Assembly (NCBI RefSeq): GCF_000155595.1
Contig: NZ_DS989904.1
Span: 4,519,987 to 4,583,986 of the forward strand
DNA length: 64,000 nucleotides
DNA from: Synechococcus sp. PCC 7335
GTDB lineage: Bacteria > Cyanobacteriota > Cyanobacteriia > Phormidesmidales > Phormidesmidaceae
Direction of reading: 5' to 3'
Below are positions 5,796-64,000 of this stretch, piece after piece; position 1 is the stretch's first letter; each line of letters opens with the position of its first letter. The notes below the pieces were generated by a model that saw nothing but the letters and a program-made list of their open reading frames with translations, did no database searches and was not told where the DNA came from. The position numbers and the translations under genes are program-made.

Positions 5796-6710
5796 TTACA
5801 TGGCAACAACGGGCTCGTTCCCATGTATTGCGTTCGTTGAATACAGATCTGCCTTAGTTGTTGTCCACTCTCTTAGCTCTCTACCCATCAGTCTCTCAAT
5901 CTCAACCACATCGAGCATGACCAAATCGCGTATGATCTGTTCTATCTTCTCAGTCACAACAGGTTTGTCTTCTATTTTTCTTCGACCCGGTTTACGAATT
6001 GCATCAGAAACTGGCTTCGCTATATACTCTGGCACAAAGAACCTTACGCCCTGTGCAATTGGACTTTGCAAAATTTTATCGACTTTAGCACTATTTTTAT
6101 ATTCACCAACTGACTTATTAGCGTGAACGTCATCGACATGATCGGAAAAAGAAGAGTCTATCCCTAGGAAATCAAATACTTTGCTCAAAGAAGATCTTCT
6201 ATTGGAGATAAGTTCTTCAAAGGTTAATAGTAAAACTTGTTCTTTACCAAAGCGTTCTATATATGGTTTTATTTGCACATAGTAACGAGAGATATTGATA
6301 TATTTAGGACGGTTCAAAATCTCTTTCTCAAAGGAGTCTTCAAAAGTTGTTCCCCTTCCGCGTTTATGTACATATTGAGAAACTATTCTATCAATAGGAT
6401 CTCTCATAATGTATATTAGCTTCATATTCGGGTTGAAGTCATAAAGTGCTTGACAAGGATCTATGCCAAAACTTGGATAGAAAGTGTAGGTTGTGGATGC
6501 TTCTCCACAGATTTGATTACTTGAAGGATTATACAGTTTCTTATATTCTTCGATACGTTCCTGCCAGTTAGAGACTTTGCTAAAGAAATGAGGCTCTTTC
6601 TTATCACAAAAACAGACTTCAGGATGCATTGATAAAATTGTAGACAGACTAGTTGTCCCACTCTTCATAGCACCTACTATCACGAAATCTACAAAAGACA
6701 TAGCGCGCAC
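5796..6710 (-). CDS. PAPS-dependent sulfotransferase (heparan-sulfate type)
   Basis: Should transfer sulfate from PAPS to a sugar hydroxyl or amine. The 5'-phosphosulfate loop is at residues 10-22 (VIVGAMKSGTTSL), followed by LSMHPEVCFCDKKEPHFFS, in which KEPHFF is typical of the Sulfotransfer_1/NDST-like group. The 3'-phosphate binding stretch is LIYIMRDPIDRIVSQYVH, and GKEQVLLLTFEELI is the usual following strand. Length 304 residues is normal. There is no signal peptide, so it acts in the cytoplasm. The start could also be the ATG three codons in (6701), giving MSFVDF. First of four sulfotransferase genes in about 8 kb, separated by a glycosyltransferase; together they suggest a sulfated surface glycan. 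Confidence 0.88.
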   Translation of the reverse strand: MRAMSFVDFVIVGAMKSGTTSLSTILSMHPEVCFCDKKEPHFFSKVSNWQERIEEYKKLYNPSSNQICGEASTTYTFYPSFGIDPCQALYDFNPNMKLIYIMRDPIDRIVSQYVHKRGRGTTFEDSFEKEILNRPKYINISRYYVQIKPYIERFGKEQVLLLTFEELISNRRSSLSKVFDFLGIDSSFSDHVDDVHANKSVGEYKNSAKVDKILQSPIAQGVRFFVPEYIAKPVSDAIRKPGRRKIEDKPVVTEKIEQIIRDLVMLDVVEIERLMGRELREWTTTKADLYSTNAIHGNEPVVAM

Positions 6711-8464: not shown

Positions 8465-9658
8465 CTAAATCGAAGAAATTTCAGAACCTAGTGCTCTGAG
8501 CAAAAACATCTGTATTTTTTTCGTAATCTCGCCTTCTGGGATAGATAGAGTAGTTAGATAGAAACTAGAACGGCCTTTCAGCCGTCGGCGAGCTAAACAA
8601 AGGAACAACGATATTGTTCTAGATATCTGTTCTTGTATCGATTTCCCTGACTCGGGCAAACTACAGAAGACAAAGTCTTCATCTGAGCTAATATGATTGC
8701 TTAACTTATGGTTAAAAGTAGAAATTCGTTTATCGCTACTTGCTGCATTGATAAATAGATATTCGTTTTTTTCAACAAAGTTCCTATTTATTTTGTATAA
8801 AAATACAGTTGATTTTGGCTTTGATATGAAATCGTATCCAAAAGCTTCGATACCAGACTGACAAGCATAAGTTGCGGGTTTATAGAGGTAGTTAGGTAAG
8901 TTTTTCTTCCAAGCATATAGCCGGCTTGGATCTAGCGGCTGAGAGACCTGCAATTTCCAAGGTTCTTTCGGTGTAATGACATTGTGGGCGGACTTTGAAG
9001 TATCCATCATTGAAGGCTCAAAAGTCCTGTGAATATGGTTGCACACTTTTCTCAACGTAGCCTCCGGTTCTAGAACTAGATCTTCATATCGAATAGTTAA
9101 AGTTCCTTTATCATCCTCGCAAAAATCATGACTTTGATTAAACCATTCGCTCCAGAGATAGCAATTGGCCAATACTGATTGACTAGCCCATGGGAGTTTT
9201 CTCATTGATACTGCAGAGTCTCTTGGATCTCGGATAATTCGAACAATGAAAGCTTGGGGAAAAGCCTTGCGGATTGTCGGCAAATGCAGCAAGTGATTAG
9301 GAGTTTTTTCAACCCAGCACTTCTTGTCTTTCTTTTGGGCATGTTGTAGAGTAAGCGACTCTAACATATTTGTTATCGAAGGCGACCTACAGGTAAGATA
9401 TTCATCTATCTCACCGGGTGTAAGCTCGAAGAGCTCATAGACCGGCTGCCTCGACAGTTTGAGAGACAAAATCTCGTTGACAGCCTTTTTGGGCCAATCA
9501 ACCTCCTCGATTGCGCTTCTCAATTTGTTAGGATTTAATCTTCTGAAAAAATGAGTTTCTGGTCCACAAGCAATCTCACTGTGATTTGCTAAAAAAGCAG
9601 AAAGAAGAGTGGTACCAGAACGAGGCGCTCCGACTATAAACACAGGTTGGTCTAGCAT
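8465..9658 (-). CDS. Sulfotransferase with a C-terminal extension
   Basis: A 397-residue sulfotransferase. The PAPS loop is at residues 6-20 (VFIVGAPRSGTTLLSAF), followed by HSEIACGPETHFFRRL. The 3'-phosphate site is FIVRIIRDPRDSAVSMRKLPW, and WVEKTPNHL and LTIRYEDLVLEPEATLRKVC are characteristic of the Sulfotransfer_3 group. The catalytic domain ends near 275 with YACQSGIEAFGYDF. The remaining roughly 120 residues (VFLYKINRNFVEKNEYLFIN onward) match no domain I recognise and include a predicted helical, basic tail. Surroundings are long AT-richer intergenic regions on both sides, typical of transferred surface-polysaccharide genes. Confidence 0.85.
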   Translation of the reverse strand: MLDQPVFIVGAPRSGTTLLSAFLANHSEIACGPETHFFRRLNPNKLRSAIEEVDWPKKAVNEILSLKLSRQPVYELFELTPGEIDEYLTCRSPSITNMLESLTLQHAQKKDKKCWVEKTPNHLLHLPTIRKAFPQAFIVRIIRDPRDSAVSMRKLPWASQSVLANCYLWSEWFNQSHDFCEDDKGTLTIRYEDLVLEPEATLRKVCNHIHRTFEPSMMDTSKSAHNVITPKEPWKLQVSQPLDPSRLYAWKKNLPNYLYKPATYACQSGIEAFGYDFISKPKSTVFLYKINRNFVEKNEYLFINAASSDKRISTFNHKLSNHISSDEDFVFCSLPESGKSIQEQISRTISLFLCLARRRLKGRSSFYLTTLSIPEGEITKKIQMFLLRALGSEISSI

Positions 9659-10265
9659 GTTTCAGTTATTACTAGTAATGGCTTTGTTACACGAACAAAC
9701 CATGGGAAGATGCAGTGGTTAGAAAGGTGATGCTGGTAGGCGCTTCTGCACGTATTAAGTTATCTTCAGGGCTGCCAGATTCGCTATAGTTATCAATAGT
9801 TCCTTACTTATTCAAGAAATTACCAATCAAAAATGAGACTCTCTTTTCGTACAAGATCTGACCTTCAAGGTATCTCTACAAGACGCTAAGAAAGCTAGCT
9901 GCTTTGTCCTTCATAACATCTGGCGATTAGAAAAAATTATTAAATACATATTGCCTACCCTACAGTTCGCCTCTTAAACCCGTATCATGATGGTTTACTA
10001 GTCAGACATAGGCTGTATATAAGGCTACTGCCTACTTATCATCGCTGAGTGAAAGTGTAGCTTTCCTAGTTACTAGTTCTTTCTTGACTAGTCAGTTCTG
10101 ACACAGCATATGTCGATCCTAAGGGATATTCAGTTTCGACTACAGTCAAAAATCATTTTCGCTTTGGACTTCGGTATTACTAAGGCGACTATCACTAAGG
10201 CGACACATTCGACTACTTAAGATATCTTGGAAGCAGTCTTGTAGATGATATCCCACATGATGAGT
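9659..10265. other. Intergenic, 607 bp
   Basis: Nothing codes convincingly on either strand. No tRNA-like structure or long inverted repeat seen. Unusually large for a gap between two co-directional genes, which is consistent with deletions or relocations in this region. Confidence 0.5.
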
Positions 10266-11144
10266 TCAGTCGTTGTAGGTATAGTTTTGCAAGAATGGAA
10301 AGGACTGCATTTTAGTCGCTACATAATCTATTAGCTCCGCTGACCATTCTGTAGAATGACGACTATTACTAGGCGATCGATAAACAACTTTGGCGCAGTC
10401 AGCTAAATAAGACTCTATTGGCTCTACACCCAAGAAAGTACACAGCTGCTGAAGATACGCTCGTGGATCATCGATAAAGTCTTCATGCCCAAACTCGAAG
10501 ATTTCATCAGCTGATAGGCTTTCTTTAACGTCAGAACTCGCTTTGCACAGAAAGAAATAGTAGTCGATGCTCCGTTTGAGATCACCTTTGAGATGAGGCG
10601 TTTTTTTAGCAAGTGTACTAATGTTATCGTAAGTGTTTCTATAAACGTGGACAAACTTAAGGTCGACATCGAGTATCTTTCTTAGGTTTGACAAGGGTTT
10701 AGGGCTAGCCGCAATTCTAAGGGTCGTACCACCGCCTTTCTTATCTCCAAGCACCTTCAGTTGCTCAGTACGCCCTTGCCATTGATTAGGTACATAATAG
10801 TTGTAGCCGCCGCCTATCTTATGAGATGGATCGGCAGACCGCTGGGATAGTTCCAGAATAAGCTCATAGATTTGATATCTGCTGTAGCCCGCATGAGCAT
10901 ACTTTAAGATGTCTGCTTCATGGGAAATAGCTATGTGGGGATGAGCATTCAAAAGCGACCCTACCAAGGTATGACCGCTTCTGGGATACCCTAGGAACAA
11001 GCAAAACGTTTCTACATCTTGCCAGAGCTCACTATGAACAAATCCGCTGTAGGCTAGAGGAATATAGCGTTTCGCGATCTCTGCCAGCTGAGGAAGTCTT
11101 CCTTGTGTGCGGGACGCGGTTAACCAATTTGAAGTTTTACTCAT
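10266..11144 (-). CDS. Sulfotransferase family protein, third type
   Basis: A 292-residue protein. The PAPS loop lies further in than in its neighbours, at about 47-63 (FCLFLGYPRSGHTLVGSLL), followed by NAHPHIAISHEADILKY. The expected 3'-phosphate strand is FVHVYRNTYDNISTLAKK. The GHTL form of the loop (His in place of the usual second Thr/Ser) and the preceding 45 residues put it in a subfamily different from the two genes downstream on this strand. The acceptor is unknown. Its divergent neighbour is pepA, 319 bp away. Confidence 0.8.
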   Translation of the reverse strand: MSKTSNWLTASRTQGRLPQLAEIAKRYIPLAYSGFVHSELWQDVETFCLFLGYPRSGHTLVGSLLNAHPHIAISHEADILKYAHAGYSRYQIYELILELSQRSADPSHKIGGGYNYYVPNQWQGRTEQLKVLGDKKGGGTTLRIAASPKPLSNLRKILDVDLKFVHVYRNTYDNISTLAKKTPHLKGDLKRSIDYYFFLCKASSDVKESLSADEIFEFGHEDFIDDPRAYLQQLCTFLGVEPIESYLADCAKVVYRSPSNSRHSTEWSAELIDYVATKMQSFPFLQNYTYND

Positions 11145-58515: not shown

Positions 58516-59796
58516 ATGTTCTCTAGATTTCGTCGCGCTATCGGTCGCTTCTTTAATCGGTCTCGTCGGATCAACCACAAGCCGATCAACAGATTCAGTT
58601 TGATCATCATCATTCTGGTTGATTTGTTCATCTTGTTCAATGTATTTGCTGGGTTAGACGATATTAGTCGGTGGCCACTTAGCCCAGAGAAAACATATCC
58701 CTGTCGTTCGGAATGGATCAGCTATCGTGAAGACACTGCAGAAGAGAAAGACTACCGTTTTATCAACCAGCTAGTCTCATCGGATAGTGATACCCAAAAC
58801 CCTAGGTTACCCGCCACGATTAATCAGTCATACTACCGAGGTAGCTACTATGGTAGCTATCAAGATCTCGGCAGAGGCCATCTAGGTGAAGTATCTGAGA
58901 TTTGCTTGCAATACGAATCTGCTCTTGAGGCTGTCGATAGTCTAGATAACAAAACAATTATCAGCCGCATCAACGACATTCAAGCCGAGATCAGTTCCTT
59001 TACGAGGCAGAACGCTGATATTCGTCAGCAATATGATTCAACGCTGCTAGAAGAGATTGCAGGCCAGCCACGAGAGCAATCAATCAACGCCGTAGAAGCA
59101 GCACAGGCAAGACGCGAGATCGAACAAAACGATCAGGCGATCGCTCAAAGAGAAGCCACCCTCGAAACGCTCAAAACAGAACTGATCTCTACACCAGAAA
59201 GCCAAACCTTTCTATCCCTACTTAGCGACGATACTAGATTCAACCAAATTGACAACGGCTATCAGCGAGCGAGCTTCTGGTATCCCAGCATTCAACTGTT
59301 CTTTCAAGGACTGTTCCTGCTGCCCCTTATCGTTGTTGCATCCGGTGTGAACCGCCTGGCCGAGCGAAGAGACTATGGCTATATATCACTAATTAGCTGG
59401 CATCTATTTGTCATCTTCTGTATTCCTCTGGTCTGGAAAATCTTTGAGTTTTTGCAATTTGGGTTCTTAATTGAGCTGTTAATAGAGTTCTTAGAATTTC
59501 TATTTGGTGGTCTCCGCTTCCTAATCAACTATCTGCAGATTCTGTTGATTCCAGCGATTGGATTTGGCGTCATCAAGTTCTTTCAAAGGTTTGTGTTTAA
59601 CACTCGCCTGCAGGCTGCCAACCGCGTACAAAGTGGGCGCTGCGTCAACTGCGCCAAGAAAATTCGCAAGCGTGACCTACACTGTCCTCACTGCAGCTAC
59701 TCTCAATATCAAGAATGCACAAACTGCCATAACCTCACCTATAGACACCTCCCCCACTGCAAACACTGCGGTACCGAGCAGACACTGGAACTGTAG
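58516..59796 (+). CDS. Membrane protein with C-terminal double zinc ribbon
   Basis: Not a named family to me. N-terminal basic stretch (RFRRAIGRFFNRSRR), a membrane helix at about 25-43, an extracytoplasmic or luminal segment with helical QNADIRQQYDSTLLEE, then membrane helices at about 255-345. The cytoplasmic C-terminus has a double zinc ribbon: CVNCAKKIRKRDLHCPHC and CTNCHNLTYRHLPHCKHC, four CxxC knuckles. Such ribbons bind protein or nucleic acid. Lies downstream of hemA without an obvious link. Confidence 0.72.
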   Translation: MFSRFRRAIGRFFNRSRRINHKPINRFSLIIIILVDLFILFNVFAGLDDISRWPLSPEKTYPCRSEWISYREDTAEEKDYRFINQLVSSDSDTQNPRLPATINQSYYRGSYYGSYQDLGRGHLGEVSEICLQYESALEAVDSLDNKTIISRINDIQAEISSFTRQNADIRQQYDSTLLEEIAGQPREQSINAVEAAQARREIEQNDQAIAQREATLETLKTELISTPESQTFLSLLSDDTRFNQIDNGYQRASFWYPSIQLFFQGLFLLPLIVVASGVNRLAERRDYGYISLISWHLFVIFCIPLVWKIFEFLQFGFLIELLIEFLEFLFGGLRFLINYLQILLIPAIGFGVIKFFQRFVFNTRLQAANRVQSGRCVNCAKKIRKRDLHCPHCSYSQYQECTNCHNLTYRHLPHCKHCGTEQTLEL

Positions 59797-59910
59797 CGCA
59801 AACCAGATGTTGGAAACAGAGTAATACAGCAGCGATATAGCACTTTTAGTTCAGACATCAATAGCAGTTTTCTTTTGCTACTGCCACCGATTCAATCGCT
59901 AACGATAGCG

Positions 59911-60909
59911 CTAACGTAGCGGCAGTTTCATACTATCGAGTTCTCTCCCCTGACGAAAGAACTGAATCAAAACGAATAATAAAATACCCAACGCCATAAT
60001 GAACTCGCAGTGTTCCTCATCAGAACTATGAAGAAAATTTACCTGATATTGGAAATTGGTGTAGTCAAACAGAATGTAAAAAACAACAATCGGGTAAAAG
60101 AAAGAAGAAATGGGCCAGTCAGGAATTAGATATCTAATATCGAGGGATTTTGTGTTGAGAGATTGTGGATTATGCCTTTTTGATTGCCATAAGCGCAATA
60201 TAAGCCAGCAAGAAGCGCCAATCAGACCAACAATTAAGAAGCCCAAGTGCAACCAGTTCTGAAAAACGTTAAGATTGTGAACTGTCAGCTCCGATTGAGC
60301 ATTGTTTTTGGACCAAAACTGAGGTTCCTCAAAGCCCAGCAGCTTTTGTCCCCAGCTTAGCTCTTCCATCCCAACAAAAAAGAAGCCCGCGCTCAGTAAG
60401 TAGTACAGCCAAGCGGCTACCTTTTGGCCCTGTTGATTAAAGGCCGCTGCCATACGGTAGGTAAACAGCGGCACGACCAGGTAAATTAGCGCTGTTCCGT
60501 ATTCCGAGAGACCGCCTTCGCTACCCATATAGCGCCATTCGTCGCTGGTGGGTCCTACGCGTAGCTTAATTACAATCAGCAAGGCAGTTATGAGAAAGGG
60601 CAACGCGTACAGATACTTACCAAAGCTGGCCTGACGGCTGCGTTTGGCAAAGGCTGCGATCGCCTGACCTAAGATCGATGGCGAGCTGACAAAAATGAGG
60701 ATAAGAGCGATCGCGCTAGCTGCTACTATGCTCAGCCCGACGCCCTCACCTGCCGCAATAGCCATCGCAGCTTGTACCAGCTGAACAATGAGTAAAATAA
60801 CACCCGCTAAGCGCAGCGTAATACCAAACACTTTGGTGCTAAAGGCTAGTCTATGCTGATAGTGGGTAACAGATGGAGAAGAAACAGGTGAGAGCGGTTT
60901 TTTAAGCAT
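59911..60909 (-). CDS. Polytopic membrane protein with EELSWGQ motif
   Basis: About eight hydrophobic helices. The conserved segment GMEELSWGQKLLGFEEPQFW followed by NLNVFQNWLHLG is a recurrent motif in uncharacterised membrane proteins, and SSDEEHCEFIMALGIL near the C-terminus is a second acidic motif. Function unknown. The open frame extends to 61005; the ATG at 60907-60909 gives MLKKPLSPVSS and avoids a cysteine-rich leader that looks non-native. Confidence 0.72.
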   Translation of the reverse strand: MLKKPLSPVSSPSVTHYQHRLAFSTKVFGITLRLAGVILLIVQLVQAAMAIAAGEGVGLSIVAASAIALILIFVSSPSILGQAIAAFAKRSRQASFGKYLYALPFLITALLIVIKLRVGPTSDEWRYMGSEGGLSEYGTALIYLVVPLFTYRMAAAFNQQGQKVAAWLYYLLSAGFFFVGMEELSWGQKLLGFEEPQFWSKNNAQSELTVHNLNVFQNWLHLGFLIVGLIGASCWLILRLWQSKRHNPQSLNTKSLDIRYLIPDWPISSFFYPIVVFYILFDYTNFQYQVNFLHSSDEEHCEFIMALGILLFVLIQFFRQGRELDSMKLPLR

Positions 60910-61059
60910 TCTCTTTATCCTACAGTTTCGCTGACGCTTACAGTTTTGCCAACGCTGTATACACGCTAAGCACTTTATCACAATGGGATATGGCCACACG
61001 ATCATAGGGCTACTAGAGAAGTAGAGTCCTCAAGTAACAATCGCGCCTAGACTTGCATA

Positions 61060-61395
61060 TGTGAATTGGCTAGTCACTGATGGCGATCGCTGTGCATATG
61101 GGTTACTAGCCCATGTGCTGTAGGCATACCCATGTGGCATAGTGGTCAAAGCTTTAGGATCGTCATGTATGATTTGGGGGCTACTTTCTTTGGCTATTAT
61201 CAGAAATTGCACCTAATTGTCTGATCAGCACAGACAACACCTGGAACAATAAAACCAACAATGAATGTTTCTAGTCTATTCACGCGCTTTCTTTTTCTCT
61301 GTCTAATACTGACGTTCACACTGGGCTGTACAGCCACGGCGGCTATCCCCACAGAAAGCAGCTCTGATGGCATCTATTTCCAAAAAAGCGTACAG
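61060..61395. repeat. Left copy of a ~300-bp direct duplication
   Basis: The stretch ending in the lipoprotein start is near-identical to 63650-63990: both contain a gtcatgta-gatttg-ggctact block, a cacagacaacac-tggaacaataaaacc-aaca block and the first 40 codons of the same signal peptide. Blocks are separated by small indels. It carries the promoter and leader of the methyltransferase-like gene at 63842. Confidence 0.8.
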
Positions 61396-61407
61396 AGAAG
61401 CATCTGA
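61261..61407 (+). pseudogene. Truncated copy of the lipoprotein leader of the methyltransferase-like gene
   Basis: 48 codons: MNVSSLFTRFLFLCLILTF then TLGCTATAAIP with the lipobox TLGC, identical over about 30 residues to the gene at 63842. After IYFQKS it leaves the homologous sequence and stops at a TGA (61405-61407). Only the lipid-anchored leader remains. The following small ORF begins inside this copy in another frame. Confidence 0.75.
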
Positions 61408-61639
61408 GTTCATTCACGGAAATTTCCACAAAATAGCAATTCTTCCGGAAAAAGTTGAGATTGATTTAGAGCTACTAAGCAAGTGGCTAGACTTAGTCGA
61501 AATAAATAAATTAATTACAGTTTTTGTATTGGCAGTCAGGTTCTCGAAAGATTTGAATGAGGAGGAATTTGGAAAGATAGAAGAAACGATGAAAGATGAG
61601 CTTGGTAGCATCGAACCATTTGCTCCTCTCTTTACATGA
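61367..61639 (+). CDS. Small acidic helical protein, 90 aa, next to the ATPase
   Basis: No family recognised. Sequence is helical and amphipathic, with SKWLDLVEINKLITVFVLAV in the middle and an acidic second half (DLNEEEFGKIEETMKDELG). The ATG at 61367 lies within the duplicated lipoprotein leader, out of its frame, so either this gene took over a start there or it is 5'-truncated. No other ATG, GTG or TTG is available early in the frame. It ends 53 bp before the ATPase gene and has the same lower GC content, which argues that the two are one unit. Confidence 0.55.
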   Translation: MASISKKAYREASEFIHGNFHKIAILPEKVEIDLELLSKWLDLVEINKLITVFVLAVRFSKDLNEEEFGKIEETMKDELGSIEPFAPLFT

Positions 61640-61692
61640 ATCAGCCTACAGTATGTATCTTCGGGTTCTAGACTATACAGGAAATAAAATAA

Positions 61693-63288
61693 ATGTCTGA
61701 CTTCAAACTACGTACCGAAAACATTAAACCCACGAAGATTCTTGATTACTATGTAGAAACTAAAGACGATAGAAAAATCGTAAATCAGTTGAAGTCTGAT
61801 GTACCTATTGTTTTAGTTGGAAGTCGTGGTGTAGGCAAGTCTTTTTTGTTACGGGTTGCAGAAGCGGAACTAAAAAAAGATGTGCAAGAAGAAAATGTGG
61901 TTCCTGTATATCTATCGTTTACGCAGGGATCTATGCTGCAGCTCGATGATGAGACTCAGTTCTATACATGGATGCTTGCTAAGATGTGCTCAGCATTTCT
62001 ACGAAGTATCAAGAAGTTAGGTGTTTACGCGCCGGCATCCATTCTTGCTTCTAAGTCGGGAGACGATGAAGAGAACTATTTAAACCGATTAATCGTGGAA
62101 TTTGAGCAGACATGGAAAGGTGGAACAATACAGACGAATACGGCAGATTTGCCGTCAGTTGACGAATTCAAAGAGACTATAGAAGATATCTGTGAAGAAG
62201 CCGGAATTGACTTCGTAAACTTTTTCGTTGATGAAGCCGCTCATATTTTAAGACCAGCACAACAGCGCCAATTCTTCAGTTTGTATCGGGACGTTAACAG
62301 TCCATACATAAATTGCAATGCTGCAATCTATCCAGGCGTCACTTCATTTGGGAGTAATTTCCAACCAATTCATGACGCTACCTTTGTAAACCTTGAAAGA
62401 GATGTTTCTAGTTCTGGCTATGTCAATTACATGCAAAACATTGTTGAAAAGCAGGCAGCTGCAAAAATACTGGCGAAGATTACTAAGAACAAATCGAACT
62501 TTGCAATTCTGGCTTACGCGGCTAACGGGAACCCAAGAATCCTCCTAAGGACACTAAGCCTAGCCCCAAACGTATCATCTAGAGAACTTAATACGGTTGT
62601 TAAAGAATTCTACAAAAGCAGTATTTGGGAAGAGCATACATTACTCGCTGAAAAATATTCAGGGTTTAAAGAATATATTGATTGGGGACGAGACTTTGTC
62701 GAAGATATGGTTTTGCCGGAACTAAAAAGTAAAAATGACGACTACCTGAACCGTGACAAGAAAACAACCCGCTATTTCTGGACTCACAAAGATGCCCCTG
62801 AGCGAGTAAAAAAGGCCTTAAACCTTCTCTGCTACACAGGCATAATTTCCACGCACACAGATGCGGTAAAAGCCACTCGAAGTGAAGTTGGTACAAGATA
62901 TAGCGTTAACATGGGATGCCTACTCTCTTTAGAGAATGTGCCTGCCAGAACGGGCCTTGACATTGTTCGAAACATAACAATAAAGAGAATGTCTGAGTAT
63001 GGAGCTAATCACGCTGCATACGATAGTCTAAACCCTAACATGACCGAATTTGATAATTCTGTAATTAACCAAGCTCTAAAACAACAGTTAGCAAAATCCG
63101 TTGAATTTTTGGCATTGCCTGAGTGGTTGATTGAAAGATTGAAAACGCTAGGCTTGGATCAAATCGGGAAGGTTTTAGACGCAACTGAAGAAAAAATTCA
63201 AGAAGCCTCCTATTATGTAGGAAAAGTTCGGTCTCGATACATCAAGAATGAAGCATTGTCAGCAGTATTTGAATATTTATCTGGATAG
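61693..63288 (+). CDS. P-loop ATPase, ORC/STAND-like, with C-terminal helix-hairpin-helix tail
   Basis: A 531-residue protein. Walker A is GSRGVGKSFLLR at about 43-54. Walker B is VNFFVDEAAHI at about 175-185 with a DE pair. Sensor-region text INCNAAIYPGVTSFGSNFQP and LAYAANGNPRILLRTLSLAP (sensor 2 with NPR) is typical of ORC/Cdc6-like and STAND ATPases. Residues about 330-460 look like a winged-helix and helical region. The last 60 residues (LPEWLIERLKTLGLDQIGKV, then ATEEKIQEASYYVGKVRSRY) resemble a helix-hairpin-helix or RNA-polymerase alpha-CTD-like fold. Possible roles are DNA-bound sensing or a defence module; neither is shown. It sits between the two copies of a duplicated block and is AT-richer than its neighbours. 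Confidence 0.85.
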   Translation: MSDFKLRTENIKPTKILDYYVETKDDRKIVNQLKSDVPIVLVGSRGVGKSFLLRVAEAELKKDVQEENVVPVYLSFTQGSMLQLDDETQFYTWMLAKMCSAFLRSIKKLGVYAPASILASKSGDDEENYLNRLIVEFEQTWKGGTIQTNTADLPSVDEFKETIEDICEEAGIDFVNFFVDEAAHILRPAQQRQFFSLYRDVNSPYINCNAAIYPGVTSFGSNFQPIHDATFVNLERDVSSSGYVNYMQNIVEKQAAAKILAKITKNKSNFAILAYAANGNPRILLRTLSLAPNVSSRELNTVVKEFYKSSIWEEHTLLAEKYSGFKEYIDWGRDFVEDMVLPELKSKNDDYLNRDKKTTRYFWTHKDAPERVKKALNLLCYTGIISTHTDAVKATRSEVGTRYSVNMGCLLSLENVPARTGLDIVRNITIKRMSEYGANHAAYDSLNPNMTEFDNSVINQALKQQLAKSVEFLALPEWLIERLKTLGLDQIGKVLDATEEKIQEASYYVGKVRSRYIKNEALSAVFEYLSG

Positions 63289-63302
63289 ACGCACCTTGCC
63301 TC

Positions 63303-63352
63303 CTAACACAGCCGCTGCACCCGACCTACTACAGGTGCAGCGGCTGTGTTAG
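63303..63352. repeat. Perfect 19-bp inverted repeat directly after the ATPase gene
   Basis: ctaacacagccgctgcacc (63303-63321) and ggtgcagcggctgtgttag (63334-63352) are exact complements around a 12-base loop. It starts 15 bp after the stop codon and has no T run. GTTGGAT follows at about 63372-63378. The layout resembles integron attC sites or a mobile-element end more than a plain terminator; identity unproved. Confidence 0.85.
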
Positions 63353-63360
63353 CACGGTCG

Positions 63361-63620
63361 GCAAACAAAACGTTGGATAGGTTGAGACGTCATTCGAGAC
63401 TTAAGGTCTGGTAGCGAATCCAGCTAGTTGAGCAGCGCTATCCCTTGTTCGACTACGCAGCCAAGTCCAATCGAAGTAACTGATAGCCAATTGAGCAGTC
63501 ACTTTAGTCTGTGCCCAAAGCTTGCCAAACCGGTTTCGTTGTCTATGCCAACGCCCTGCTTGCTGATAAACAATACCGTTCGCCGGCAACCAACATAAAT
63601 CTTCAATCGGTAAAACCTCT
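63361..63620 (-). mobile_element. Probable transposase 3'-end remnant
   Basis: On the minus strand a frame reads AGRWHRQRNRFGKLW, then KVTAQLAISYFDWTW and SAAQLAGFATRP before a stop. Shifting the frame just after it gives NDVSTYPT. The order basic helix, KVTAQL...YFxW, AAQxAG, then W/N-DLxTYPT is what I expect at the C-terminus of a cyanobacterial DDE transposase. The upstream catalytic domain is absent. Family not assigned. Confidence 0.4.
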
Positions 63621-63649
63621 GCTATATCTATATATAGAGCTATGGAGAA

Positions 63650-63990
63650 GGATGCGTTCCTACCTTACCAATCACGTTGGCTGCTATGTGTATAGGTTTC
63701 AGTCCATGTACTATACCTTGGCGTGGAAAACCAAAGCTCTAGGCTTGTCATGTACGATTTGAGGGCTACTTCCGGCTGTTGCTAAAATCATATTCAATCA
63801 TTTGAGCGACACAGACAACACTTGGAACAATAAAACCAACAATGAATGTTTCTAGCCTATTCACGCGCTTTCTTTTTCTCTGTTTGATACTGACGTTCAC
63901 ACTAGGTTGCACAGCAACAGCAGCTATTCCCATAGATAGCAGTGATAGCATCTACAGCTACAAGAAGCCTAGCTCTGACGGTATTGGCAA
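63650..63990. repeat. Right copy of the ~300-bp direct duplication
   Basis: Corresponds to 61060-61395. It leads directly into the longer lipoprotein-methyltransferase-like gene, so it is probably the original location. Confidence 0.8.
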
Positions 63991-64000
63991 GGTTTATTAC
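63842..64000 (+). CDS. Lipoprotein, probable SAM-dependent methyltransferase, 3' end outside window
   Basis: Starts with the same signal as the truncated copy (lipobox TLGC, Cys about 23) and continues DSSDSIYSYKKPSSDGIGKV. The SxDGIGKxY piece is what I recall from the N-terminus of a cyanobacterial lipid-anchored class I methyltransferase; the methyltransferase domain itself lies outside the window. The lipoprotein call is secure, the methyltransferase one is tentative. Confidence 0.6.
   Translation, partial: MNVSSLFTRFLFLCLILTFTLGCTATAAIPIDSSDSIYSYKKPSSDGIGKVYY

What the first reader, a model, noticed from the sequence alone, without database searches (positions are those of the whole stretch)
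61060..63990. Candidate mobile module carrying an ORC/STAND-like ATPase, between copies of a duplicated gene leader
A block of about 300 bp (promoter plus lipoprotein leader) is present on both sides of about 2.3 kb that holds only a small acidic gene, a P-loop ATPase, a perfect palindrome and a probable transposase remnant. The cargo is AT-richer than flanking genes. This is the arrangement expected of an insertion with target duplication by recombination or of a tandem duplication later invaded. Small-protein-plus-ATPase pairs with DNA-binding tails are a common form of undescribed phage-defence systems. Nothing shows function.
Basis: partly seen in the sequence, partly recalled or inferred. 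Interest (0 to 1): 0.75.

Follow-up and report, generated by a model that had tools for sequence, protein, structure and literature searches.

The report
Broken toxin–ATPase pair, probable integron cassette
This cyanobacterium carries a damaged copy of a widespread, apparently undescribed two-gene module, a predicted RNA-cutting toxin plus an ATP-driven sensor of the kind used against phages, and it was probably delivered as an integron gene cassette.

Summary
Most of the anatomy is real, but three readings change. (1) The "small acidic gene" (61367-61639) is the C-terminal third of a ~235-residue HEPN-like protein: it matches positions 144-234 of that family's 237-position profile, and no other match is found in the genome at E<=10. 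(2) That protein lies directly upstream of the ATPase in 75 of 75 genome loci whose ATPase is at least 33% identical, so the unit is a strict HEPN + ORC/STAND-ATPase pair. One copy sits inside an SspBCD phage-defence operon. (3) The "perfect palindrome" resembles attC sites of this genome's own chromosomal integron: a model of four host attC sites finds only this place in 64 kb (E 0.0078). In the closest relative, Hydrogenovibrio, the pair lies between attC sites beside an integron integrase. The repeated leader starts a lipoprotein-methyltransferase gene; its upstream copy breaks off where the HEPN remnant begins. The ATPase was not found in 94 of 94 relatives; four genus relatives carry other cargo here, one a type I restriction system. 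Best reading: a horizontally acquired abortive-infection-type module that lost most of its toxin to a deletion. Defence function is inferred. My paper searches found no description of the pair.

The parts
58516..59796 (+). Conserved left flank: membrane protein with C-terminal zinc ribbon, next to a hemA-like gene; synteny with the closest relative G002 ends with it
   Evidence: blastn to G002 ends at 59795; homologue in 6 of 7 genus genomes, own included
59911..61005 (-). Accessory membrane-protein gene (start may be 60909), part of the variable stretch
   Evidence: ORF list; in the genus only weak or partial matches at other places
61147..61382 (+). Upstream copy of promoter and lipoprotein leader of the methyltransferase gene, broken off where the HEPN remnant begins; leader ORF 61261-61407 runs out of frame into the remnant
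   Evidence: Repeats, alignment, synonymous-only differences in 30 codons
61367..61639 (+). C-terminal remnant (90 aa) of the HEPN-like partner; keeps the YRxxSxxxHG (R-x6-H) motif, lacks the first ~143 profile positions
   Evidence: Profile A4 matches positions 144-234 of 237 here, E 1.6e-19, no other match in the genome at E<=10; one search gives 61364-61633, positions 144-233
61693..63288 (+). Intact 531-aa ORC/CDC6-STAND ATPase with C-terminal RNA-polymerase-alpha-CTD-like domain
   Evidence: PF24389; Walker A and DEA motif invariant in 76 of 76 rows; fold; C-terminus
63301..63354 (+). attC-like hairpin starting 12 bases after the ATPase stop codon (the perfect palindrome)
   Evidence: Model of four host attC sites: only match in the window at E<=10, E 0.0078; exact 15-base match shared genome-wide only with the integrase-side attC
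63364..63580 (-). Degenerate end of an IS1-family-like transposase gene
   Evidence: 68% to C1:3406606-3406821 beside an IS1-like ORF (35 bits, cut-off 100); 58% over 57 aa by tblastx
63732..64000 (+). Second promoter and leader, start of the intact lipoprotein-methyltransferase gene (63842 to 64597, beyond the window)
   Evidence: L002 ORF 3828-4583; methyltransferase domain

Best explanation
The locus is a decayed copy of a two-gene conflict module. Intact versions encode a ~235-residue HEPN-like protein (predicted RNase effector) immediately followed by a ~536-residue ATPase of the ORC/CDC6-STAND clade whose tail resembles the DNA-binding C-terminal domain of RNA polymerase alpha. Likely mechanism (inferred): the ATPase, bound to DNA or to an invader product, assembles with ATP and releases or arranges HEPN dimers, which cut cellular RNA and stop phage growth (abortive infection). 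The module moved between bacteria, here probably as an integron gene cassette with its own attC, and settled between a zinc-ribbon gene and a lipoprotein-methyltransferase gene, a place that swaps cargo in this genus. A deletion later joined the start of an upstream copy of the lipoprotein gene to the last third of the HEPN gene, so this copy very probably has no working HEPN domain although its ATPase is intact. Shown: pairing, truncation, motifs, predicted folds, absence in the relatives searched, attC match, cassette setting in Hydrogenovibrio. Inferred: RNase activity, defence, route of arrival, order of events.
For: Partner directly upstream in 75 of 75 genome loci with ATPase identity >=33% (72 with >=200 of 237 profile positions in one piece), in 5 of 5 more distant genome loci and in 8 of 16 viral-contig loci (the profile holds 69 of these 75 itself, but loci outside it match too). 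R-x6-H in 74 of 76 partners, inside the HEPN Rx4-6H range (PMC3710099, passages). Partner model pLDDT 96; of the eight best VIA rows, Z 8.9-10.8, five are titled HEPN, the other three I recall as HEPN-like; next row 7.8. ATPase: Foldseek E 3.2e-6 to Cdc6/Orc1; VIA best 2qen Z 14.7, with CED-4, RdrA, TnsC and BrxC among the rows. Planktothrix copy lies directly behind SspB, SspC and SspD and before a helicase. Tree: window ATPase with Hydrogenovibrio and Methylobacter, 100/100. Not found in 94 of 94 relatives. Integron.
Against: No function was tested. The helical Z scores are under the level (about 13) that the tool advises for helical bundles, and Foldseek gave no hit at E<=0.001 for the partner. 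Among 144 nearest-neighbour ORFs no PADLOC family matched more than 2 and I ran no control, so a general defence-island link is not shown. No match in 50,697 phage records. The remnant has stayed open and is 47-51% identical to two relatives (56.5% between them), so strong decay is not visible. The hairpin lacks the unpaired spacers and bulged base of the array attC sites, lies about 0.8 Mb from the integrase, and no second attC is found in the window. The host integrase gene has an in-frame TAG.
Confidence: 0.68

Rival explanations
1. The 90-aa ORF is a working small protein: the C-terminal part of HEPN kept as an adaptor, regulator or antitoxin-like inhibitor for the ATPase or for other HEPN proteins.
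For: It is open, keeps Y-R-x6-H-G, and is 47-51% identical to two relatives over 85 residues.
Against: Of 75 loci the only other partners under 200 profile positions in one piece are one at a contig edge (L089), one split by an ISKra4 transposase (L107) and one lacking 45 positions (L153). The remnant would lack the first ~148 residues of the modelled fold, including part of its long central helix. Its start lies inside the out-of-frame leader ORF.
Confidence: 0.13
2. The hairpin is an ordinary transcription terminator or other palindrome and the module did not come as an integron cassette.
For: A perfect stem without attC spacers or bulge; distance from the integrase; most family members show no attC: 2 of 78 ATPase ends above the 99% level and 11 of 78 above the 95% level of 943 other ORF ends (0.8 and 3.9 expected); integron integrase in 1 of 101 loci.
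Against: Exact TAACA-N7-TGCACCCGAC match found genome-wide (up to 1 mismatch) only here and in the integrase-side attC, control 0 (the pattern was chosen after seeing both). The model of four host attC sites, built without it, hits only here in the window. Home-made score 15.5 exceeds all 943 control ends, maximum 12.4. The closest relative is in a cassette setting. No T-run follows.
Confidence: 0.22
3. The pair is a toxin-antitoxin or stress module (HEPN toxin held by the ATPase) without a role against phages.
For: HEPN proteins are common toxins (PMC3710099, passages); in Methylobacter L083 the pair stands among housekeeping-type genes; HEPN loss with the ATPase kept is seen twice in cyanobacteria (window, Nostoc L107).
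Against: Placement inside the Ssp operon of Planktothrix, presence on 8 viral contigs, ATPase clade shared with immune proteins, patchy horizontal spread.
Confidence: 0.2
4. One reading: insertion flanked by a target duplication of the leader, or a tandem duplication later invaded.
For: Two leader copies flank the module.
Against: The copies differ by 9 synonymous and 0 non-synonymous codons in the first 30, so they were not just duplicated at insertion; the codons after those 30 do differ in amino acid and by an indel. A tandem gene duplication followed by invasion and deletion remains possible and fits the best reading.
Confidence: 0.08

Closest known systems
HEPN superfamily (Anantharaman et al. 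2013, PMC3710099, passages read)
   Same: All-helical predicted fold, R-x6-H inside the Rx4-6H range, repeated coupling to NTPases and restriction systems
   Different: The representative partner L082 has no Pfam match at E<=0.1; 20 of 76 members match DUF5677 weakly (best 3.3e-5) and 1 of 76 HEPN_AbiA_CTD at 0.03; the window copy lacks most of the domain
PF24389 ORC-CDC6-like; NCBIfam NF047389 ATPase_Sll1717 and NF053860 DS41_1 anti-phage protein
   Same: N-terminal ATPase domain; PF24389 41.2 bits over its cut-off of 27
   Different: NF047389 30.1 of 75 bits and NF053860 36.6 of 370 bits, N-terminal part only; our ATPase adds an alpha-CTD-like tail and a fixed HEPN partner. What else DS-41 contains I could not see
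DUF499/Hma (BREX-related) HEPN-ATPases (PMC12839542, passages)
   Same: HEPN joined to an ORC/CDC6-STAND ATPase
   Different: There HEPN is fused to the ATPase and works with a methylase and a helicase; here two separate genes without fixed further partners
Ssp and Dnd-linked Orc/CDC6 systems (PMC10853773, passages)
   Same: One copy lies in an SspBCD operon; endoRNases as backup effectors are proposed there
   Different: The passages seen describe Orc/CDC6 with REase, HerA, KAP or TIR partners and HEPN separately, not this pair
Integron cassettes with phage-defence genes (Kieffer; Darracq; seen only as references in PMC13092281)
   Same: A conflict module carried between attC sites
   Different: A two-gene HEPN/ATPase cassette; the window copy sits alone, away from the integrase, with an atypical attC

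Membership tests
HEPN + ORC/STAND ATPase pair (this family) | Full-length HEPN-like gene directly upstream of the ATPase | tested here: not met
   Window: positions 144-234 of 237 only; relatives 75 of 75 have the partner
HEPN + ORC/STAND ATPase pair (this family) | ATPase intact with the family-invariant residues | tested here: met
   Walker A, DEA and GNPR columns identical in 76 of 76 rows including the window
HEPN superfamily | R-x4-6-H catalytic motif | tested here: met
   R155 and H162 in 74 of 76 partners, spacing six in 76; kept in the window remnant
HEPN superfamily | HEPN fold | tested here: inconclusive
   Eight best VIA rows Z 8.9-10.8 (five titled HEPN) against 7.8 for the next, but below the level advised for helical proteins; Foldseek no match at E<=0.001
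HEPN superfamily | RNase activity | not testable with these tools
   No experiment
ORC/CDC6-STAND ATPases | Clade-specific profile and fold | tested here: met
   PF24389 over cut-off; Cdc6/Orc1 E 3.2e-6; 2qen Z 14.7, rmsd 4.3, 310 residues
DS-41 anti-phage system (NF053860) | Equivalog cut-off of 370 bits | tested here: not met
   36.6 bits
PADLOC candidate PDC-S01 | Match over the whole model | tested here: inconclusive
   E 1.5e-5 but residues 28-98 against model 19-88 of 412 only; no cut-off given
Integron gene cassette (window copy) | attC at the 3' end of the gene in the right orientation | tested here: met
   Model R1, + strand, full length, E 0.0078, rough; caveat: perfect stem without spacers or bulge
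Integron gene cassette (window copy) | Located in an array beside attI and integrase | tested here: not met
   Integrase at C1:3781478-3782419, about 0.8 Mb away; no other attC in the window at E<=10
Integron gene cassette (Hydrogenovibrio copy) | attC on both sides and integron integrase | tested here: met
   TIGR02249 423.5 bits, cut-off 265; attC-type sites 6129-6242 (score 11.3) and 8596-8655 (score 7.5, reached by 2.3% of controls) recognised by eye, folding and score
Phage-defence system | Protection against phages | not testable with these tools
   No experiment; context only

The most novel reading that the evidence does not exclude
A previously undescribed two-gene immune system, spread over at least 12 bacterial phyla and viral contigs, in which an ORC/STAND ATPase with an RNA-polymerase-alpha-CTD-like DNA-binding tail senses invading DNA or transcription and unleashes a separate HEPN RNase; it travels among other ways as an integron cassette. 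In this cyanobacterium the effector was shed while the sensor stayed, and the cassette's attC became a perfect palindrome that integrase can no longer use, locking a disarmed sensor into the chromosome.
Probability: 0.35. Interest if true: 0.75.

Novelty: new variant of a known kind. Interest (0 to 1): 0.58.

Why it matters
If right, a widespread and very regular HEPN/ATPase pair is still outside the curated family libraries searched here and can be tested at once with intact relatives. It would also add a two-gene conflict module to the cargo of integrons, show one in a cyanobacterial chromosome, and give a natural case of effector loss with the sensor kept, useful for asking what such ATPases do alone.

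Tried and rejected
Rejected: fusion of the lipoprotein leader to the small ORF (different frame). A second HEPN piece elsewhere in the genome (none at E<=10). Other copies of the ATPase in the genome (none at E<=0.001). Other copies of the palindrome (only itself in reverse at E<=0.001). Transposon target duplication. Family searches of the small ORF (Pfam best E 0.086, PADLOC none up to 1).

Led nowhere or weak: single-sequence scans of genome and viral contigs found no relative; the six-sequence alignment did. Profile search of the PDB with the partner gave only chance-like hits. The host attC model found nothing in the 83 other loci scanned, not even the Hydrogenovibrio sites, so it is clade-specific and says nothing about them; it also found nothing at E<=1 in the seven loci of genus relatives. 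Two of the four host array sites fold no better than 31 and 12 of 200 shuffles. attC-like repeats in Bacteroidota loci L100, L129 and L137 are suggestive only: the home-made score has noise, and the stretches behind the ATPase fold with z -1.9 (L100), -0.8 (L129) and -1.0 (L137). The tallies of neighbours name families, not loci, show the first 25 families, and had no control. The transposase remnant itself has no NCBIfam hit at 0.01. The structure counted was drawn by me from the same four sites.

Dropped before counts: of 194 relatives in genome contigs the tool kept 80. The 76-partner alignment left out L098 (long start), L107 and L109 (short ORF calls), L089, L101 and L153 (no ORF called), and all loci below L066. 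The ATPase alignment left out the last three, and ORFs under 500 or over 570 aa; the tree added Planktothrix. L065 and L085 are the same contig stretch. One search used 78 loci with identity of at least 33% and enough sequence after the stop.
Full report
Setting. The window is G000:C1:4519987-4583986 of a 5.97-Mb genome in 11 contigs.

What is at the coordinates. A promoter-plus-leader block at about 61147-61382 recurs at about 63732-63962; a search of the genome with it gives these two places only. Read beyond the window, the second copy starts a complete 251-aa gene, a lipoprotein-type leader followed by a SAM-methyltransferase domain; DNA matches lie in 5 of 6 other genus genomes. The first copy stops at about 61382, where the small ORF's homology begins. 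In the first 30 codons the two copies differ in 9 codons, all synonymous, where 26-31% of random changes would be; the codons just after differ in amino acid and by an indel. The relative G002 is further away (64-66% against 85% over 106 nt). So both copies were under selection as leaders after they parted, which fits a second copy of the gene later cut by a deletion better than a target duplication.

The small gene is a fragment. In G166 (L065, the same stretch as L085) and on a Planktothrix agardhii plasmid the ATPase is preceded by a 252- and a 239-residue protein, and the window's 90-aa ORF aligns to their last third. With a profile of 76 such partners the own genome shows one match only, window 61364-61636, positions 144-234 of 237, E 1.6e-19; nothing else reached E 10. 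In 75 of 75 genome loci whose ATPase is at least 33% identical the partner is directly upstream, 72 with at least 200 of 237 positions in one piece; the three others are a contig edge (L089), a Nostoc gene split by an ISKra4 transposase (L107; 260.5 bits, cut-off 205) and L153, which lacks the first 45 positions. The profile was built from 69 of these 75 loci and 7 viral ones; loci outside it (for example L061, L098, L101, L109) match as well. All 5 more distant genome loci and 8 of 16 viral-contig loci also have it.

What the two proteins are. Partner: R-x6-H in 74 of 76, plus invariant R85, E89, W107, D113, W116, Y154, S158, H162 and G163; AlphaFold2 model of the Hydrogenovibrio member pLDDT 96.1, all helical. 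Foldseek gave no match at E<=0.001. In the VIA re-alignment the first eight rows have Z 8.9-10.8, then a drop to 7.8; 2hsb, 3o10, 4nqf, 1wol and 1o3u are titled HEPN, while 1ufb, 2q00 and 2jpu are not and I know them as HEPN-like only from memory. The tool warns that helical bundles can reach about 13 by arrangement alone. Motif and fold together make HEPN likely, not proven. ATPase: PF24389 ORC-CDC6-like 41.2 bits (cut-off 27), Walker A GSRGxGK[ST], DEA and GNPR in 76 of 76, model pLDDT 86.7, structural matches to Cdc6/Orc1, archaeal STAND-type ATPases, CED-4, plant NLRs, RdrA, TnsC and BrxC. Profile positions 466-520 resemble the C-terminal domain of RNA polymerase alpha, best E 1e-4.

Where the pair occurs. 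The tree of 77 ATPases names 12 bacterial phyla; the window row joins Hydrogenovibrio (69%) and Methylobacter (63%) with 100/100 support and not the other cyanobacterial rows, a pattern of horizontal transfer. Among 95 genomes (own plus 94 relatives; 80 of the 95 at least 90% complete with at most 5% contamination) only the own has a match. 4 of 72,556 plasmid records and 0 of 50,697 phage records match. On the Planktothrix plasmid the pair lies directly behind SspB (E 5.8e-118), SspC (E 0) and SspD (E 6.6e-115) and before a helicase (best PbeA, 2.7e-27) and further genes. Three proteobacterial plasmid relatives (24% identity) have a zinc-ribbon-like stretch in the ATPase and a 274-299-aa gene downstream instead, one with a weak RiboL-PSP-HEPN match (E 0.0012, below cut-off). 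For nearest neighbours in other loci (144 ORFs) no Pfam family occurs more than three times and no PADLOC family more than twice; YhcG, Fic, integrase, transposase and restriction genes appear once or twice. I had no control, so I claim no general defence-island association.

The place is a cargo site. Between the left flank (hemA and the zinc-ribbon gene) and the methyltransferase, G002 has a type I restriction system (HsdR, HsdM, HsdS), a MazE/PIN pair and a Schlafen-AlbA_2 gene, split over two contig ends whose adjacency is inferred; G003 an LRR-Roc-COR protein; G001 a C39-peptidase ABC transporter with neighbours; G006, where no zinc-ribbon gene was found, a glycosyltransferase that also matches the GT4-conflict family. 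In G005 the flanks are on different contigs and in G004 the methyltransferase was not found.

The integron link. In Hydrogenovibrio L082 an integron integrase (TIGR02249, 423.5 bits, cut-off 265) is followed by a short stretch that I take for a first cassette (its ORF was not confirmed by a call), an attC (6129-6242), the HEPN and ATPase genes and a second attC (8596-8655), recognised by eye, by folding and by score (11.3 and 7.5). The window's genome has its own integron integrase, 50% identical, with one in-frame TAG near its start (sequence), and on its cassette side four attC sites whose pairs covary (7 of 17 pairs with changes on both sides; 0 of 500 shuffles reach it; the structure was drawn from these sites). 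The palindrome after the window's ATPase shares TAACA-N7-TGCACCCGAC exactly with the first of them; in the whole genome only these two places match with up to one mismatch and the reversed control gives 0 (the pattern was chosen after seeing both). A covariance model built from the four array sites, without the window, gives one match in 64 kb at E<=10: 63301-63354, + strand, full length, 21 bits, E 0.0078, a value the tool calls rough. A home-made attC score puts it at 15.5, above all 943 other ORF ends (99% level 9.4, maximum 12.4) and like the host's four sites (11.0-15.3). Against: the stem is perfect and lacks the spacers and bulge seen in the array sites, it stands alone, and it is about 0.8 Mb from the integrase. 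A perfect palindrome made from an imperfect one by template switching is a known kind of mutation (recalled) that would inactivate the site; this is speculation. Across the family cassette carriage is a minority: integron integrase in 1 of 101 loci (three others had only distant recombinase matches), 11 of 78 ATPase ends above the 95% control level where about 4 are expected and 2 of 78 above the 99% level, with attC-like arrays in L100, L129 and L137 that I regard as suggestive only.

Mechanism. By analogy with STAND and ORC-like immune ATPases, the ATPase is taken as the sensor and switch and the HEPN protein as the RNA-cutting effector. None of this is tested. In this genome the effector is reduced to about 90 residues, so the copy is probably disarmed; the Nostoc case shows a second loss of the HEPN gene with an intact ATPase ORF.

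Literature. Searches (listings; one search failed) and passages of PMC10853773, PMC12839542, PMC3710099, PMC8195603 and PMC13092281 show Orc/CDC6 ATPases and HEPN domains in defence systems, also fused in DUF499 proteins, but not this pair. The library lacks most subscription papers and no supplement was read, so an earlier description elsewhere is possible; DS-41 in particular shares a related ATPase domain and I could not see its other parts. In NCBIfam (June 2026) no match of the family members scanned passed a cut-off that would name the pair, and PADLOC (2023) gave only weak partial matches for the window ATPase, the best PDC-S01.

Noticed in passing
L167 (G000:C1:3772000-3791000), integrase about 9479-10435, attC at 8095-8009, 7359-7275, 6718-6633, 5626-5541: Chromosomal integron in this cyanobacterium: integrase with an in-frame TAG near its start and four attC sites behind small genes (those genes were not family-searched).
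   Followed up: partly
L107 5107-6991 (Nostoc sp. CHAB 5824): HEPN gene split by an ISKra4 transposase while the ATPase ORF is intact: a second effector loss.
   Followed up: partly
L061 (Planktothrix agardhii plasmid p2, NZ_LR882954.1): HEPN-ATPase pair between SspBCD and helicase, MzaB-like, Cas4-like and PLD genes, as if it served as the effector part of an Ssp system.
   Followed up: partly
L062, L063, L064 and viral contigs L074, L076, L078, L080, L081: Distant subfamily: ATPase (zinc ribbon seen in the three plasmid ones) with a 270-299-aa gene directly downstream and, in two of the three plasmids, an N6-methylase gene shortly upstream.
   Followed up: partly
window 59797-63841 and the same place in L017/L029, L019, L030, L021: Variable cargo site between hemA/zinc-ribbon gene and a lipoprotein-methyltransferase gene: type I restriction, ROCO protein, C39 ABC transporter or glycosyltransferase in relatives.
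   Followed up: yes
L157 (Methanophagales archaeon MAG): An archaeal copy of the pair (27% ATPase identity) with the HEPN-like gene upstream and another 231-aa gene downstream.
   Followed up: no
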